Shown piece by piece: positions 31,001 to 62,600 of a stretch of 64,000 nt of DNA (within the stretch, counting starts at the first letter, position 1; each line of letters opens with the position of its first letter). Made by a program: the position numbers and the translations under genes. Source of the DNA: Stramonita haemastoma (Eukaryota; Mollusca; Gastropoda; Neogastropoda; Muricidae); contig CM060324.1 of the NCBI GenBank assembly GCA_030674155.1, positions 58,762,316 through 58,826,315 on the forward strand, in the 5' to 3' direction. Under the pieces are notes generated by a model. That model was not told the DNA's origin. It did no database searches and saw only the letters and a list, made by a program, of their open reading frames with translations.

Positions 31001-34000
31001 GGGTCCAGAGCCCAATGCTAAATTTACTGCACCCCTTCCTTTTACCAAGGCCGCCGCTGTAGTCTAGTGGTTAGGGCGTTGGATTCATAATCTAAAGGTT
31101 GCGGGTTCGATCCCAGCTTTCGGCTATGGCGTTGTGCCCTTGGAAAAGGCACTTTACGGCTATTTTCTCACCCCACCCAGGTGTAAAAGAGGTACCAACC
31201 TTGTGTTGGGGGTTAACCCTGCGATAGACTGGCGTCCTATCCAGGGAGAGTCTATGACTCTCAGTCGCTTAACGCCACAGAAACCGGGATAAGCACCGGC
31301 CTGATGAGCCTTAGGCTCGGGACAGACTTATTTTAGCTGAAAGAGGAGCTGACAGGTAAACAGACCAGGTGTGAACTTTCACCCCTCAACTCACCCGTGA
31401 CCCCCACTCTGCTTGATGGCCATAAGCTGGGAGGTGGTGGTGGTGGTGATGGAGGAGTCCCCGTGGCTCTTCTCCCAGTCGTAGGGGTCCCCTCCCGGAT
31501 GCTCTTGCGCCGCATGCACTGCTCAAACAGGTTGTGCAGGAAGGGGTAGTCAGGTGAGGTCAGGTAATCCAGGGTCTGCAGGTGTTCCAGGAAGGACTTG
31601 AGCTCCACGGGCATGTTCTTCAGCAGCTGCAGGTGGTCGTACTTCTCCTTCATGGACCCCACCTGCTCCTTGTCCTTCACCTTGCGCCACGGGAGCTGAC
31701 CTGCCATGAACTCCACCAGCATGTAGAACAGCGACCAGAGGTCGTCGTGCCGCCCCATTTCCTGACAAACACAGTTATGCTAGCATGTAGAACAATGACC
31801 ACAGAAAAAATAAAATTATAAAATGAAATTAAATTTTTTTTAAAAATAAAAAATAAATTTTGAAAAAAAAAGAAAAAAAAGAACAGTGACCACAGGTTGT
31901 CGTGCCGACCCATTTCCTGATGACACAGTTATGCCAGCATGTACAACAGTGACCACAGAAAAGAAAAATGATACTTTTTTTTTAAATTACACACACACAC
32001 AAATTTTATTACAAAATTTTTTTTTTTTTTAAAACAGTGACCACAAGTCATTGTGCCGCCCCATTTCCTGAAAACACAACAGCATGTAGAGCAGTGACCA
32101 CAGAGAAAAATAATGATTAATTTTAAAAATCAAAACAAAAAAACCCCACTAAATAGCATTTTTATTTTTTTAATTTAATAAAAAAAGAACAGTGACCACA
32201 GGGCATCATGCCGGCCCATTTCCTGAAAACACAACAGCATGTAGAAGAGCGACCACACACACAATAAAAAGAATAAATAAAATATATTAAAAAATTAAAA
32301 TAAATAAATAAAAAATAAAATAAAAAAAAGAACAGTGACCACACAGGTCATCATGTCAGCCCATTTCCTGACAACCCAAGTACGCTTTACTACCTGCTCA
32401 AAAAACCCAAAGTTCACAGCAGCAAAATAACAAGCTGTGCACTACCACATACTAGCAGATTCTAGTTGTTGCCAGCAACAGTTCTCTTTCATTCTCTTTT
32501 CTGCAGGTTAATTATCAGATATACAAATAAACACCACCAAAACAAAAAACTACCCAAAAATGTGTTCATCACGGTAAGATTCAAAATTTTAAATCTTTTT
32601 CAGTTACATAAAAAAGGTTTCAGGTACAGTAACAGCTGTCACAAACACTCACTTTGTTTTTATGAGCGTTGAGCGAGGCGTAGCGGACGGTGCCTCGAAA
32701 CCCTGCAGCTGTGCGTGGGGGTCGAACCTCCCCAGTGGCTGTGGTGTACTGCCGCGCCAGTCCAAAGTCCAGCATGTACACCTTGCGCGAATTGGCCCCT
32801 TTACCCATGGAGAAGTTGGACTGAGGACAGCAGAAAAAAAAAAACATACATACATGTATACTTTATTTTACTTCACTCATTCAAGGTCTGTTTTCTTGTT
32901 TTGTTTCGTTTTTTGGTGGGAGGGGGTGGTTGGGGGGAGAGGGTTGCGTTTTTCTTCAGCCAGGGTTTTGAGGTTCACCAGTGGTGAAATTTTTGCACTG
33001 GTCACCTGTTCTTATCCCACCACATTATGACTTCAGGGATACAACTGGAAATTTAACCTACCAATTCTGCCAGGACAGTTGGGGGGTACCCTCTCACTCT
33101 CTCTGATTTTCAACTGTCATAGGTTCTTTTGACATGCATAAGTCCATAATTATGCACATAGGTCCAACTGGTTCAGAGTCTCCTTTGAATAAAAGAATAG
33201 AGAGTCAATTTGATTGAGAGTCAAAGACACAGACAAAGAAACAAAGAGATAGTCAAAGAGGAAAAAAAAAGACAGTCAGAGAGACAGACAAAGGGACAGA
33301 CAAAGGGACAGACAAAGACACAGTCAAAAACACAGACAAAGACACAAACAACAAAAACACAAAGACACAAACAAAGAGACAAACAAAGACACAGTCAAAG
33401 ACACAGTCAAACAGACAAAAAGACAGACAAAAACACAAACAGCCAAACAAAAACACAAACAAAGACACAGTCAAAAACACAAAGACACAGACAAAAACAC
33501 AGACAACAAAAACACAAAGACACAAACAACAAAAACACAGACAACAAAAACAAAAAACAAAAACACAGTCAAACACAAACAACAACAAAACAAACACAAA
33601 AACACAAACAAAAACACAACCAAAACAAACAGCAGCCACCACCACCACCACCACCAGCACTACAACCCACAGGCTTGATGTCGCGGTGCAGGAATCCCAC
33701 AGCGTGGATGGACTCCACGGCCCTCATGATCTGCGACCCTAGCCGCAGGGTCGTGCTGAGGGAGAAGCAGCCCCGGGGCTGACTGCGCCGCAGCTCTCGC
33801 CAGGTTCTTGCCCTGAAGGGACATCACCACGTAGTTGTACCGCTCGTTGCGGCCACAGCCGATGAAACGACACACGTGGTCCCGTCCTGCAAGGAGTGAT
33901 AGTGATGATGATGATGATTATTATCAGAAATGCCATGAAGGTCGTAGATAATAGTGGTTATGTCTTTTCTAGTCAATGCTTTTAATAACATTGTGTCCAT

Positions 34001-59600: not shown

Positions 59601-62600
59601 TTGAGGATAACAGAAGAAGCAATCATGTGCTTTTTTTTCATCCGGTCCCTGTGTGTATGCAGTTTTGTAAATATTGTCATCTGTTCCCACTGGCACATGA
59701 TGGCCTACTCTTACGAAAAGTGGTACAGGATTTAACGCGTGCGCAAGATTTTCTGCGTGCATTCGCACACTGGGCTTTGGTATATAGTCTTATCCGAAGG
59801 ATGTCTGCGAAAACATCTCAGACATCCTTCGGATAAGAGATGCTTTTGCAGACTCCTTGGCATCTCTTACAAAGACCACATTAATAACGAGGAAGTGAGA
59901 ATCAGAATCGGTCAAGCCATCGGGCCCTTTGAAGATCTCCCGACCACAGTCAAAAAATGCAAACTGAAGTGGTATGGGCACGTCGCAAGATCAACAGGGC
60001 TTGCCAAGACGATTCTGCAGGGAACTGTGCAAGGCGGGAGAAGGAGAGGCAGGCAGAGAAAGAGATGGGAGGACAACATCTGAGAGTGGACGGGCCTCAG
60101 GCTGAGTGACACCCTGAGAGAGGTCGAGGACAGAGGGAAATGGAGAGAGCTGGTTGCGAGGTCTTCCATGGCGCCCCTACGGTTTAAATAAACTACGGGA
60201 TAGAAGAAGAAGGATGTCCAGAAATGTGTAGATCTGTGAACTACTTGAAGAGTGTTGACCCGTGCTTTGGGTTTGTTTCCCCCTTTAGCCAAGTTTTCAA
60301 GCTTATCTCAAAGCTTTTATATCGCTAACAGCATGGAGGGGGAGGAATAGCCTAGGAGTTGGAGTGTTGAACTCATCATCTAGTAATAAAGCTGTGGATG
60401 CACTATCCTGTTCAACCTTGTGGTTCAGACAGACCATTCAAACCTGTTTGTTCCAACCTGTCAGTGTAAAATGGAGGAACTGCTACATTTGTAATGTTTG
60501 AAAGGTATGCAAAGTTAAAAGGTCGCTGTGTGCTCCAAGGTGCAAAACACACACACAAGGCATACATGCTTGGGTACATGAGGTGACCTTTATTCTTTTC
60601 TTTTGAGGATAATGGATAATGCAGTTTTGTCATCCGTTCCATTCGGCACACAATGGCCTACTCTTCCGAAAAGCGGAACAGGTTTTAATGTGTGTGCAAG
60701 ATGTTTTCTGTGTGTTCGCCTGAAGCTTTAAGCTGGGTGTTGATTGGCTGGAGGATGCAAGCTGACTGTTTTAAAATAGAACAGAACCTGTTCAAAATAG
60801 TTATGCTGATGAACCTAAAAGATCAAGCCACTGGACACATATGTTTAAAAGTAAAGGTGTCCCATAGTCTGTGTGGTCGTAGGGGAGCAAGGCATCAGAG
60901 ACCTCAGCTTCTCTAGGGGCCAGCACATTGAGGGCAGTGCCCATCTCCCCCCCCCCCCCCCCTGCTGCTTTACTTTCCCTGACCCTTAAGAGGGCAGGTA
61001 CCCATTTACAGCTGGGGGAACTGTACTGAAGCTAAGGCACGCAAACAGTCACCCATCCAGTCGGTAACCATGCCCGATGCTGCTTAAACATACCTTGGGG
61101 AAAATAAGTGCTCTGACCACTGAGCTATCTTGCTATTTACTATTTCAGGTATGCTGAACCTAAAAGCCGCTGGAGAGGTATGTTTAGGATGTTTTTCCCT
61201 GAGTGTCTCGACCTTATGGTTTGGGGGGGCTAATCTGTCACCTGCTTAATTAACTGAGGGTGCAGATGTATTGGAATTGCTGCTGAAATGTGGAAGGGGA
61301 TTTTAACATTTTAAACCATTGCAACATTTTGATGTTTGCATCGGCAAACCATATAATAATCAAAACATGCTATATGTTTAAAAGGTATATATCCCAGTTT
61401 TCTCAGTGAAGTGAGTCAGAAAACCTGGTGTGTATTTTCACAGATCTACCACAGTTTTCTCAGTGAAATGAGTCAGAAAGCCTGGCATGCGTGTGTTTTT
61501 CACAGATCTACCACAGTTTTCTCAGTGAAGTGAGCTACTAGAAAACCTGGCATGTGTGTGTTTTTTCACAGATCTACCACAGTTTTCTCAGTGAAGTGAA
61601 CTACTAGAAAACCTGGCATGTGTGTGTTTTTCACAGATCTACCACAGTTTTCTCAGTGAAATGAGCCAGAAAACCTGGCATGTGTGTGTTTTTCACAGAT
61701 CTACCACAGTTTTCTCAGTGAAGTAAGTCAGAAAACCTGGCATGTGTGTGTTTTTTACAGATCTACCACAGTTTTCACGACGAAGTGGACAGTTATCGAC
61801 AGCACTGGTGGCGCTGTGACGGTCCCTGCAAAAATCGACCGCCATACTACGGTTGGGTGAAACGAGCCATGAACCGTGCGCCCTCAGCCAGAGACCCCTG
61901 GTGGGAGGATCACGCGCGGTCCTGTGGAGGCAGCTACACCAAGGTGAAGGAACCCGAGGGCTACGGGGCCAAGAAAACAGGTGCCAAGGAACAGAGGAAG
62001 GACAAGGGGGAAAGCAAAGGTACAGGGTGGGGGATGTGTTTGTGTGTGGGTTTTTGTTGTTGTTGTTGTTTTACTAACAATTTTTTACAGGAAATATTGT
62101 GAAGGTGTACATGGTGGATGTGTTTGTGTGGTTTTTTTGTTGTTGTTGTTGTTGTTTTACACAAACAATTTTTACAGAAAATATTGTGAAGGTATACATG
62201 GTGGATGTGTTTGTGTGTTGTTTTTTGTTGTTGTTGTTGTTTTTACAAACAATTTTTACAGAAAATATTGTGAAGGTGTACATAGTGGATGTGTTTGTGT
62301 GTTTTTTCTGTTGTTGTATTACAAACAATTTTTACAGAAAATATTGTGACGGTGTCTTTTATCTATTTGTTCTTTCATTTTGAGGATAGCGGAATAAACA
62401 CACATCACGCGTTTTTACACCTAATCACCGTGTGTATGCGATTTTGTAAATTTTGTCATACCGCACAAATGACCTATTCTTCTTAAAGGCAGGGTCATAG
62501 GATCGAAAGCAGTGTAGCTGATAGTATTATCATAAATTGTTAAAAAAAAAAAAAAAAGATAAATAAATAAAATAAAATTAAAATTAAAATGTTAAATTAT

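What the first reader, a model, noticed from the sequence alone, without database searches (positions are those of the whole stretch)
31395..62355. Recurrent tandem copying of exon-intron boundaries into introns, in two adjacent genes
Five separate arrays in this window are built from splice sites plus the neighbouring exon bases: TTBK exon 2 donor, TTBK exon 2 acceptor, TTBK exon 5 acceptor, SPRTN exon 5 acceptor and the SPRTN exon 5 donor side. Periods differ (22, ~85-110, ~150, ~63 and ~80 bp), so they are independent events, yet all keep the real splice site at the exon-proximal end. The other eight or so exons in the window lack them. The copies form rows of decoy splice sites that could buffer, tune or poison splicing, or reflect a duplication process that favours exon edges (for example R-loop- or RNA-templated). 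I know of no described class that fits this recurrence.
Basis: partly seen in the sequence, partly recalled or inferred. Interest (0 to 1): 0.88.

Follow-up and report, generated by a model that had tools for sequence, protein, structure and literature searches.

The report
Snail "mirage" repeats at splice acceptors
In a sea-snail genome, short tandem repeats have copied the starts of exons, with their splice sites, into the neighbouring introns; this is a known kind of repeat, described before in lancelets, and it turns up in several other genes of this snail.

Summary
The arrays are real. Of 22 splice edges in TTBK and SPRTN, three acceptors (TTBK exons 2 and 5, SPRTN exon 5) have exon starts copied into the intron, well above mismatched controls. 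Two donor arrays only abut the donor, sharing about 3-5 exon bases. The host is a neogastropod-like snail. 'No described class' is wrong: these match amphioxus 'mirages' (PMC3087553, PMC3902484). In 80 other exons of this genome, 6 of 44 scorable acceptors carry the same structure; 1 of 55 donors scored, and on inspection 0. Decoys show no extra conservation. Best reading: ordinary minisatellite growth in a repeat-rich genome runs across acceptors and is tolerated, presumably because the exon-proximal acceptor is used. New: a snail case (none seen in nine paper searches), a rough frequency, and an acceptor/donor asymmetry. RNA and replication are lacking.

The parts
31395..31761 (-). TTBK exon 5 (kinase domain); its acceptor side is the source of the ~150-bp array
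   Evidence: tblastn with Nucella/Babylonia/Littorina/Pomacea TTBK; acceptor tgtgtttgtcag, donor gtgagttg
31719..32378 (-). Acceptor mirage of TTBK exon 5: real unit plus 4 intronic copies of acceptor + ~37 nt of exon start; last intron bases at 31762 (real), 31917, 32068, 32223, 32368; period 145-155
   Evidence: exon part 89, 82, 84 and 77% identical to the exon going outward; one copy still reads [14 protein letters not shown] in tblastn
34391..34666 (-). 22-bp minisatellite abutting the TTBK exon 2 donor; 12 further donor-like sites (10 of them AAG|GTAC) after the real one
   Evidence: exon tail not copied beyond ~5 nt (one search score 15)
34664..34811 (-). TTBK exon 2
   Evidence: tblastn, splice sites
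34773..35330 (-). Acceptor mirage of TTBK exon 2: real unit plus 2 diverged copies (74% and 61% over the aligned stretch), the nearer one without AG and split by a SINE; outer limits approximate
34855..35155 (+). tRNA-derived SINE inserted into the copied exon start of the exon 2 acceptor array, with TAGTGTACA at 34846-34854 and 35156-35164: insertion is younger than the duplication
   Evidence: 94% identical to two other copies in the window
61388..61800 (+). Acceptor mirage of SPRTN exon 5: 5 copies (junctions 61444, 61506, 61572, 61637, 61699) plus a decayed outer copy, ahead of the real junction at 61761; first 16 exon bases identical in all 5
   Evidence: the 5 were located by an exact pattern of the junction plus 11 exon bases
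61761..62019 (+). SPRTN exon 5 (zinc-binding domain)
   Evidence: tblastn; Pfam SPRTN_ZBD
62020..62355 (+). 76-87 bp minisatellite abutting the SPRTN exon 5 donor; each of 4 units has an acceptor-like site and 14-15 exon-like bases followed by a GT (donor-like AAG|GT in the first 3, ACG|GT in the last); exon tail not copied
   Evidence: one search score 17

Best explanation
These are mirages: intronic minisatellites whose repeat unit happens to span, or to end at, an exon edge. Seed duplications arise by the ordinary slippage or unequal exchange that fills this genome's introns with tandem repeats, with no strong preference for exon edges. When a seed covers [intron tail + acceptor + exon start], further rounds add units on the intron side while the terminal unit stays joined to the exon. 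The copies are then removed with the intron, presumably because the exon-proximal acceptor is the one paired with the downstream donor (exon definition). Units drift and turn over like any minisatellite. Shown here: the copies, their source, their recurrence in other genes, and no detectable excess over introns in a small sample. Inferred: slippage or exchange as the engine, neutrality, and correct splicing.
For: Exon copying at 3 of 22 window edges, all acceptors, above mismatched-pair controls. Genome sample: 6 of 44 acceptors with strong copies of the first 40 exon bases (scores 52-80; 0 of 806 cross-family pairs reach 30), e.g. L071 with seven further units of period 59-62 at 96-98% and an outer one at 80%, and L030 with 4 copies at 90-97%. 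Acceptor-side intron probes with a local copy 38 of 227 against 6 of 44 at the edge, P 0.82. About 16% of the window lies in tandem repeats. Exon identity falls roughly with distance in the exon 5 array, 89, 82, 84, 77%. Copy number differs between what look like neighbouring myosin paralogues (L075 6 pieces, L080 2), and a homologous exon has copies in L079 but not in L081. Decoy splice columns are not significantly more conserved. Amphioxus mirages have the same anatomy and were reported not to disturb splicing (PMC3087553, PMC3902484).
Against: A purely random, tolerated process should also copy exon tails at donors, but after inspection none of 55 sampled donors shows it (1 of 55, L012, by score alone), nor any of 11 window donors, against 38 of 272 donor-side intron probes (P 0.0009 with 0 of 55, 0.010 with 1 of 55). 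So either donors are selected against or acceptors are favoured; this reading does not explain that. The sample is small and clustered: positives lie in 4 of 30 gene clusters, 2 of them apparent neighbouring paralogues; kinases gave 0 of 13, myosins 6 of 31, P 0.16. Intron probes of one locus are not independent. Inside the window, edges look enriched under a strict null.
Confidence: 0.72

Rival explanations
1. A process that favours exon edges, e.g. R-loop-, polypyrimidine- or RNA-templated duplication at the 3' end of introns, seeds the arrays.
For: In the window 4 of 9 arrays from a uniform scan sit at edges, P 1e-5 to 1e-4 under the strict null. Acceptor/donor asymmetry: sample 6 of 44 against 0 of 55 after inspection, P 0.006; with the window 9 of 55 against 0 of 66, P 0.0006; if L012 is counted as a donor case, P 0.042 and 0.005.
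Against: In the independent sample the rate of local copies at acceptor edges is not above that of nearby intron, P 0.82. The generous null gives only P 0.013-0.02 even in the picked window.
Confidence: 0.17
2. The decoy sites are functional: they buffer, tune or poison splicing, giving transcripts with premature stops as a control of TTBK or SPRTN level.
For: Decoys score about as well as the real sites: 6 of 12 TTBK exon 2 donor decoys at 7.9 or more against 8.0, 4 of 5 SPRTN exon 5 acceptor decoys equal to the real 6.8, 2 of 4 TTBK exon 5 decoys (7.8) above the real 5.8 (matrices recalled, not from a call). The 9 decoy acceptors tested (SPRTN exon 5 and TTBK exon 5; the TTBK exon 2 copies were not tested) and read-through past both donors lead to a premature stop.
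Against: Splice columns are not significantly more conserved than the rest of the units (P 0.95, 0.10, 0.12, 0.27), although the copies were partly located by patterns holding the splice site, which biases towards conservation. Premature stops are expected of almost any retained intron. One copy has lost its AG. The same structures occur in unrelated genes.
Confidence: 0.07
3. Assembly artefact (stuttered or misjoined reads).
For: TTBK exons 3, 5 and 6 need frame changes to read through, which I take for assembly indels; amphioxus sequences disagreed on repeat number (PMC3902484).
Against: Copies differ by scattered substitutions (77-89% for TTBK exon 5, 61-74% for exon 2) and one is split by a SINE with flanking repeats. 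The same anatomy is found on other contigs.
Confidence: 0.03

Closest known systems
Amphioxus 'mirages' (Adh3, globin BflGb6/BflGb9, troponin C, PGBD5); PMC3087553 and PMC3902484, passages seen; the founding Adh paper is not held and is known here through those papers and from recall
   Same: Minisatellite-like tandem units spanning an exon-intron boundary, lying on the intron side, units of 10-160 bp, many but not all keeping AG or GT, imperfect copies, several genes per genome. The BflGb6 case (150-160 bp, acceptor, 6 and 3 units) is close to the TTBK exon 5 array.
   Different: Snail, not cephalochordate. Here a rough rate was measured (6 of 44 acceptors); exon copying was seen at acceptors only, whereas amphioxus BflGb9 has a duplicated 3' exon boundary. 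No RNA or allele data here.
Internal tandem repeats at exon-intron boundaries of human genes in segmental duplications (PMC2812944, passages seen)
   Same: Minisatellites at exon-intron boundaries that can alter splicing or create introns.
   Different: Found by comparing recent paralogues; half lie within coding exons and the boundary ones form novel introns; the passages seen do not describe rows of intronic copies of an exon edge.
Intron gain by internal tandem duplication (Rogers 1989, Gao and Lynch 2009, as cited in PMC3087553; not read)
   Same: Duplication of proto-splice sites supplies spare AG or GT; PMC3087553 proposes mirages as raw material.
   Different: No new intron was seen in the window; the TTBK and SPRTN proteins align to relatives through the exon junctions.

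Membership tests
Mirage (amphioxus type) | Tandem repeat unit spans an exon-intron boundary | tested here: met
   Three acceptor arrays in the window and six acceptors elsewhere. For the two donor arrays the overlap with the exon is only ~3-5 nt, so they fit weakly.
Mirage (amphioxus type) | Copies lie on the intron side; the authentic exon continues from the terminal unit | tested here: met
   The copied junctions lie in the intron ahead of the real one.
Mirage (amphioxus type) | Many but not all copies keep AG/GT | tested here: met
   TTBK exon 5 4 of 4 and SPRTN exon 5 5 of 5 (in both cases located by a pattern that includes CAG, so biased), TTBK exon 2 acceptor 1 of 2; in the sample L030 shows one copy without AG.
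Mirage (amphioxus type) | Unit length in the reported 10-160 bp range | tested here: met
   21-25, 62-66, 76-87, ~84-89 and 145-155 bp in the window; some sample arrays have wider spacings (L030 151-213, L079 173-198).
Mirage (amphioxus type) | Length instability between alleles or somatic cells | not testable with these tools
   Only one assembly held; apparent paralogues differ in copy number (L075 6 pieces, L080 2), which is suggestive.
Mirage (amphioxus type) | Normal splicing in spite of the copies | not testable with these tools
   No RNA of this species; relatives' proteins show the expected junctions.
   6 of 44 acceptor edges against 38 of 227 intron probes, and 0 of 55 donors (1 before inspection) against 38 of 272. 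Small, clustered sample of two protein families. Inside the picked window the same question gives P from 1e-5 to 0.5 by null.

The most novel reading that the evidence does not exclude
Mirages are a pervasive feature of this snail's gene architecture: of the order of one acceptor in ten carries a row of decoy acceptors with exon heads, while donors carry essentially no copied exon tails. If this holds genome-wide, thousands of introns would be natural experiments showing that acceptor choice is set by exon definition rather than by first-come acceptors, and duplication at the 3' end of introns would be a standing source of new introns and exons.
Probability: 0.35. Interest if true: 0.7.

Novelty: new member of a known kind. 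Interest (0 to 1): 0.52.

Why it matters
In the papers I could search, mirages are described only in lancelets, from a handful of genes. Finding them in a mollusc, in several unrelated genes and at a measurable rate, makes them testable as a general source of decoy splice sites and of new introns. If exon copies occur only at acceptors, that asymmetry bears on how the spliceosome picks among many equal acceptors. It also matters for annotation: such arrays can be mistaken for exons, as suspected for lancelet PGBD5 (PMC3902484).

Tried and rejected
Chance similarity: rejected by mismatched probe/intron pairs. Assembly artefact: unlikely. Other tandem repeats of the window (9345-10004, 12541-13221, 15242-15852, 24936-25220, 55240-55300) lie at no known exon edge; the 70-bp unit at 15242 contains TACAG. 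In the scan I grouped the runs into 9 tandem arrays by hand and left out the paired SINEs (30320-30560, 31050-31330) and short dispersed hits (57950, 58390, 59680, 60640); the TTBK exon 2 acceptor array was missed there because of masking. The left-hand ORF 194-1117 gave 14 homologues, 12 of them about 290-316 aa, so it looks like a single-exon gene and adds no edges; Pfam found nothing in it. Rfam found only three tRNA-like SINE heads. Selection on decoys: no signal. My first count of one donor with exon copying (L012) was withdrawn after reading the sequence: the exon appears to end at the first CAG|GTAAAT and the 28-bp array only abuts it. Left out of the 6 of 44: L013 and L023 (hits at offsets 40-60 nt only), L016 (junction score 0.7, below my cut-off of 2; 3 copies), L047 (copy on the other side); with L016 it would be 7 of 45 (acceptor against donor P 0.003). 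Of 80 loci, 19 contain withheld stretches (N), and 36 acceptors and 25 donors were not scorable. Splice score matrices were recalled, so junction calls are approximate.

Literature: nine searches. Passages were seen of PMC3087553, PMC3902484, PMC2812944, PMC3862624 and PMC12783039; the last two did not describe this in the passages seen. All other listed papers, among them two more that hold the word 'mirages' (PMC8309469 on a plant gene, PMC5714495 on a bird) and the gastropod papers PMC6905558 and PMC6122571, were seen in listings only. That no snail case was found rests on those searches of an open-licence library.

Failed aim: a replication sample written down beforehand (dynein family PF08393) never came, because the search did not complete on any try.

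Full report
What was checked. The window holds TTBK on the minus strand (exons at 38014-38070, 34664-34811, 33671-33886, 32653-32820, 31395-31761, 27718-30234, 22011-22062) and SPRTN on the plus strand (53359-53639, 53960-54068, 54649-54693, 56672-56746, 61761-62019, 63357 to the window end). The closest proteins are from Nucella lapillus (SPRTN 69%, TTBK 73%, adjacent locus numbers) and Babylonia areolata (61%, 71%); Nucella is a neogastropod. 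The window lies at G000:C9:58762316-58826315 in a 2.17-Gb assembly. TTBK exons 3, 5 and 6 need frame changes to read through, which I take for indels in a draft assembly.

The arrays. For each of 22 splice edges I aligned the 45 exon bases nearest the edge to the adjoining intron (up to 1500 nt). Three edges stand out: TTBK exon 5 acceptor (54), TTBK exon 2 acceptor (41), SPRTN exon 5 acceptor (35); the other 19 score 22 or less, the 99th percentile of 462 mismatched pairs is 26, and the maximum of 54 among those matches the same intron seen from the exon 4 side. In all three the best copy starts at the first exon base. The TTBK exon 5 copies (4) hold about 37 exon bases at 89, 82, 84 and 77% identity. 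The SPRTN exon 5 copies (5) share the first 16 exon bases exactly. The TTBK exon 2 copies (2) are 74% and 61% similar over the aligned stretch, the nearer one with AA for AG and split by a SINE flanked by TAGTGTACA. The donor arrays are different: the 22-bp array at the TTBK exon 2 donor has 12 further donor-like sites, and the SPRTN exon 5 donor array has 4 units each with an acceptor-like site and a GT after 14-15 exon-like bases, but neither copies the exon tail beyond about 3-5 bases.

Enrichment inside the window. A uniform scan, microsatellites masked, gave 9 local tandem arrays as I grouped them; 4 touch an exon edge, and the exon 2 acceptor array was missed because of masking. Placing seed units at random gives 0.17-0.36 expected and P 1e-5 to 1e-4. 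Placing whole arrays and letting exons stop them gives 1.05-1.31 expected and P 0.013-0.02. Any tandem repeat within 15 bp of an edge: 5 of 22 against a background of 0.21, P 0.51. The window was chosen for the feature, so none of these is a fair test.

The genome sample. I took 80 exons from the same genome: the 30 best of 70 myosin-head matches, the 30 best of 140 kinase matches and 20 more of the myosin matches, each with 1.5 kb on both sides. A first, loose scan of 149 scorable edges of 160 gave 10 with a copy (6.7%), against 292 of 2150 intron probes (13.6%) and 3 of 242 exon-interior probes. Junctions were then called by splice score and frame (47 acceptors, 56 donors above the cut-off). 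The first 40 exon bases have a local copy at 6 of 44 acceptors (L030, L071, L075, L079, L080, L082); the last 40 exon bases at 1 of 55 donors; no cross-family control pair reaches the threshold (0 of 806 and 0 of 1332). The donor case, L012, is on reading a 28-bp array abutting CAG|GTAAAT, like the TTBK exon 2 donor array, with no copied exon tail, so I count 0 of 55. The acceptor cases are plain: L071 has seven further units of period 59-62 at 96-98% identity and an outer one at 80%, L030 four copies at 90-97%, L075 six pieces, L080 two, L079 three at 96-98%, L082 twelve mostly short ones.

What the sample says. On the acceptor side, introns have a local copy at 38 of 227 probes (offsets -600 to -60 pooled), the acceptor edge at 6 of 44 (P 0.82). 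At donors exon-tail copies are rare or missing: 0 of 55 after inspection (1 of 55 by score) against 38 of 272 donor-side intron probes at the same offsets (P 0.0009, or 0.010 with L012). Acceptors differ from donors: 6 of 44 against 0 of 55, P 0.006, with the window 9 of 55 against 0 of 66, P 0.0006; counting L012, P 0.042 and 0.005. Limits: the positives lie in 4 of 30 gene clusters, two of them apparent neighbouring paralogues, with kinases at 0 of 13 and myosins at 6 of 31 (P 0.16), so rates are rough (95% interval 5-27%, not corrected for clustering), and intron probes of one locus are not independent. A replication sample written down beforehand could not be obtained.

How it most likely works. 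The window is rich in tandem repeats (15.9% by TRF). Seed duplications that include an acceptor and some exon grow like other minisatellites; the outer units drift, as in the exon 5 array, and units turn over, as between apparent paralogues (6 pieces against 2 copies in L075 and L080). The copies must be spliced out, since use of any of the 9 decoy acceptors tested, or read-through past either donor, meets a premature stop. By a simple score (matrices recalled) decoys are about as good as the real sites, so choice by strength alone cannot explain correct splicing; exon definition could. That step is inferred. Decoy splice columns are not significantly better conserved than the rest, so I see no sign of use. 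Why donors lack exon-tail copies is open: selection against extra donors, or seeding in the pyrimidine-rich tract before acceptors.

Place among known things. I recalled the amphioxus Adh mirages and looked for them. PMC3087553 (passages) describes amphioxus globin arrays of 150-160 bp made of the intron 3' end and exon 5' part, cites Adh3 units of 10-72 bp, gives the name mirages, notes that many but not all units keep AG/GT, reports that regular splicing appears to continue, and proposes them as a route to new introns. PMC3902484 (passages) adds PGBD5 arrays of 60 and 108 bp. The snail arrays meet the anatomical features; allele instability and normal splicing could not be tested. PMC2812944 (passages) describes human minisatellites at exon-intron boundaries that make novel introns. 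In nine searches, most hits seen as listings only, I found no report in a mollusc.

Noticed in passing
window 31789-31894 and the matching parts of the next units: Inside the ~150-bp units of the TTBK exon 5 array an A-rich stretch (+ strand) is flanked by two copies of about AGAACARTGACCACA, which correspond to exon bases ~22-37: it looks like an A-rich insertion with a 15-16 bp target-site duplication that hit an early copy and was then amplified.
   Followed up: partly
window 43703-46888: Uninterrupted 1062-aa frame with endonuclease and reverse transcriptase domains (Pfam RVT_1, Exo_endo_phos): a LINE-like element with an open frame between the two genes.
   Followed up: no
window 30305, 31053, 34858: Three tRNA-headed SINE copies, 94-97% identical, each scored as tRNA by Rfam; probable source of false tRNA calls.
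   Followed up: partly
window 22063-22100: The TTBK exon 7 acceptor has TTTGTTTGCAG twice, 19 bp apart; an exact 11-mer recurs that close at 72 of 6505 positions, so it may be chance.
   Followed up: partly
window 38013 and 54069: The donors of TTBK exon 1 and SPRTN exon 2 run almost directly into (GA)n and (AT)n(GT)n microsatellites.
   Followed up: no
L012 1728-1900: A 28-bp array abuts a myosin donor with CAG|GTAAAT (or near) in most units, the same anatomy as the TTBK exon 2 donor array.
   Followed up: partly
L030, L075, L081 and L079, L080 (G000:C20 around 33.76-33.90 Mb): Two myosin genes in opposite orientation about 100 kb apart have mirages at some exons with different copy numbers; they could be paralogues or unmerged haplotypes.
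   Followed up: no
window 194-1117: Apparently single-exon gene of unknown function (298 aa from the first ATG used) with 14 homologues, none with a telling name; no Pfam match.
   Followed up: partly
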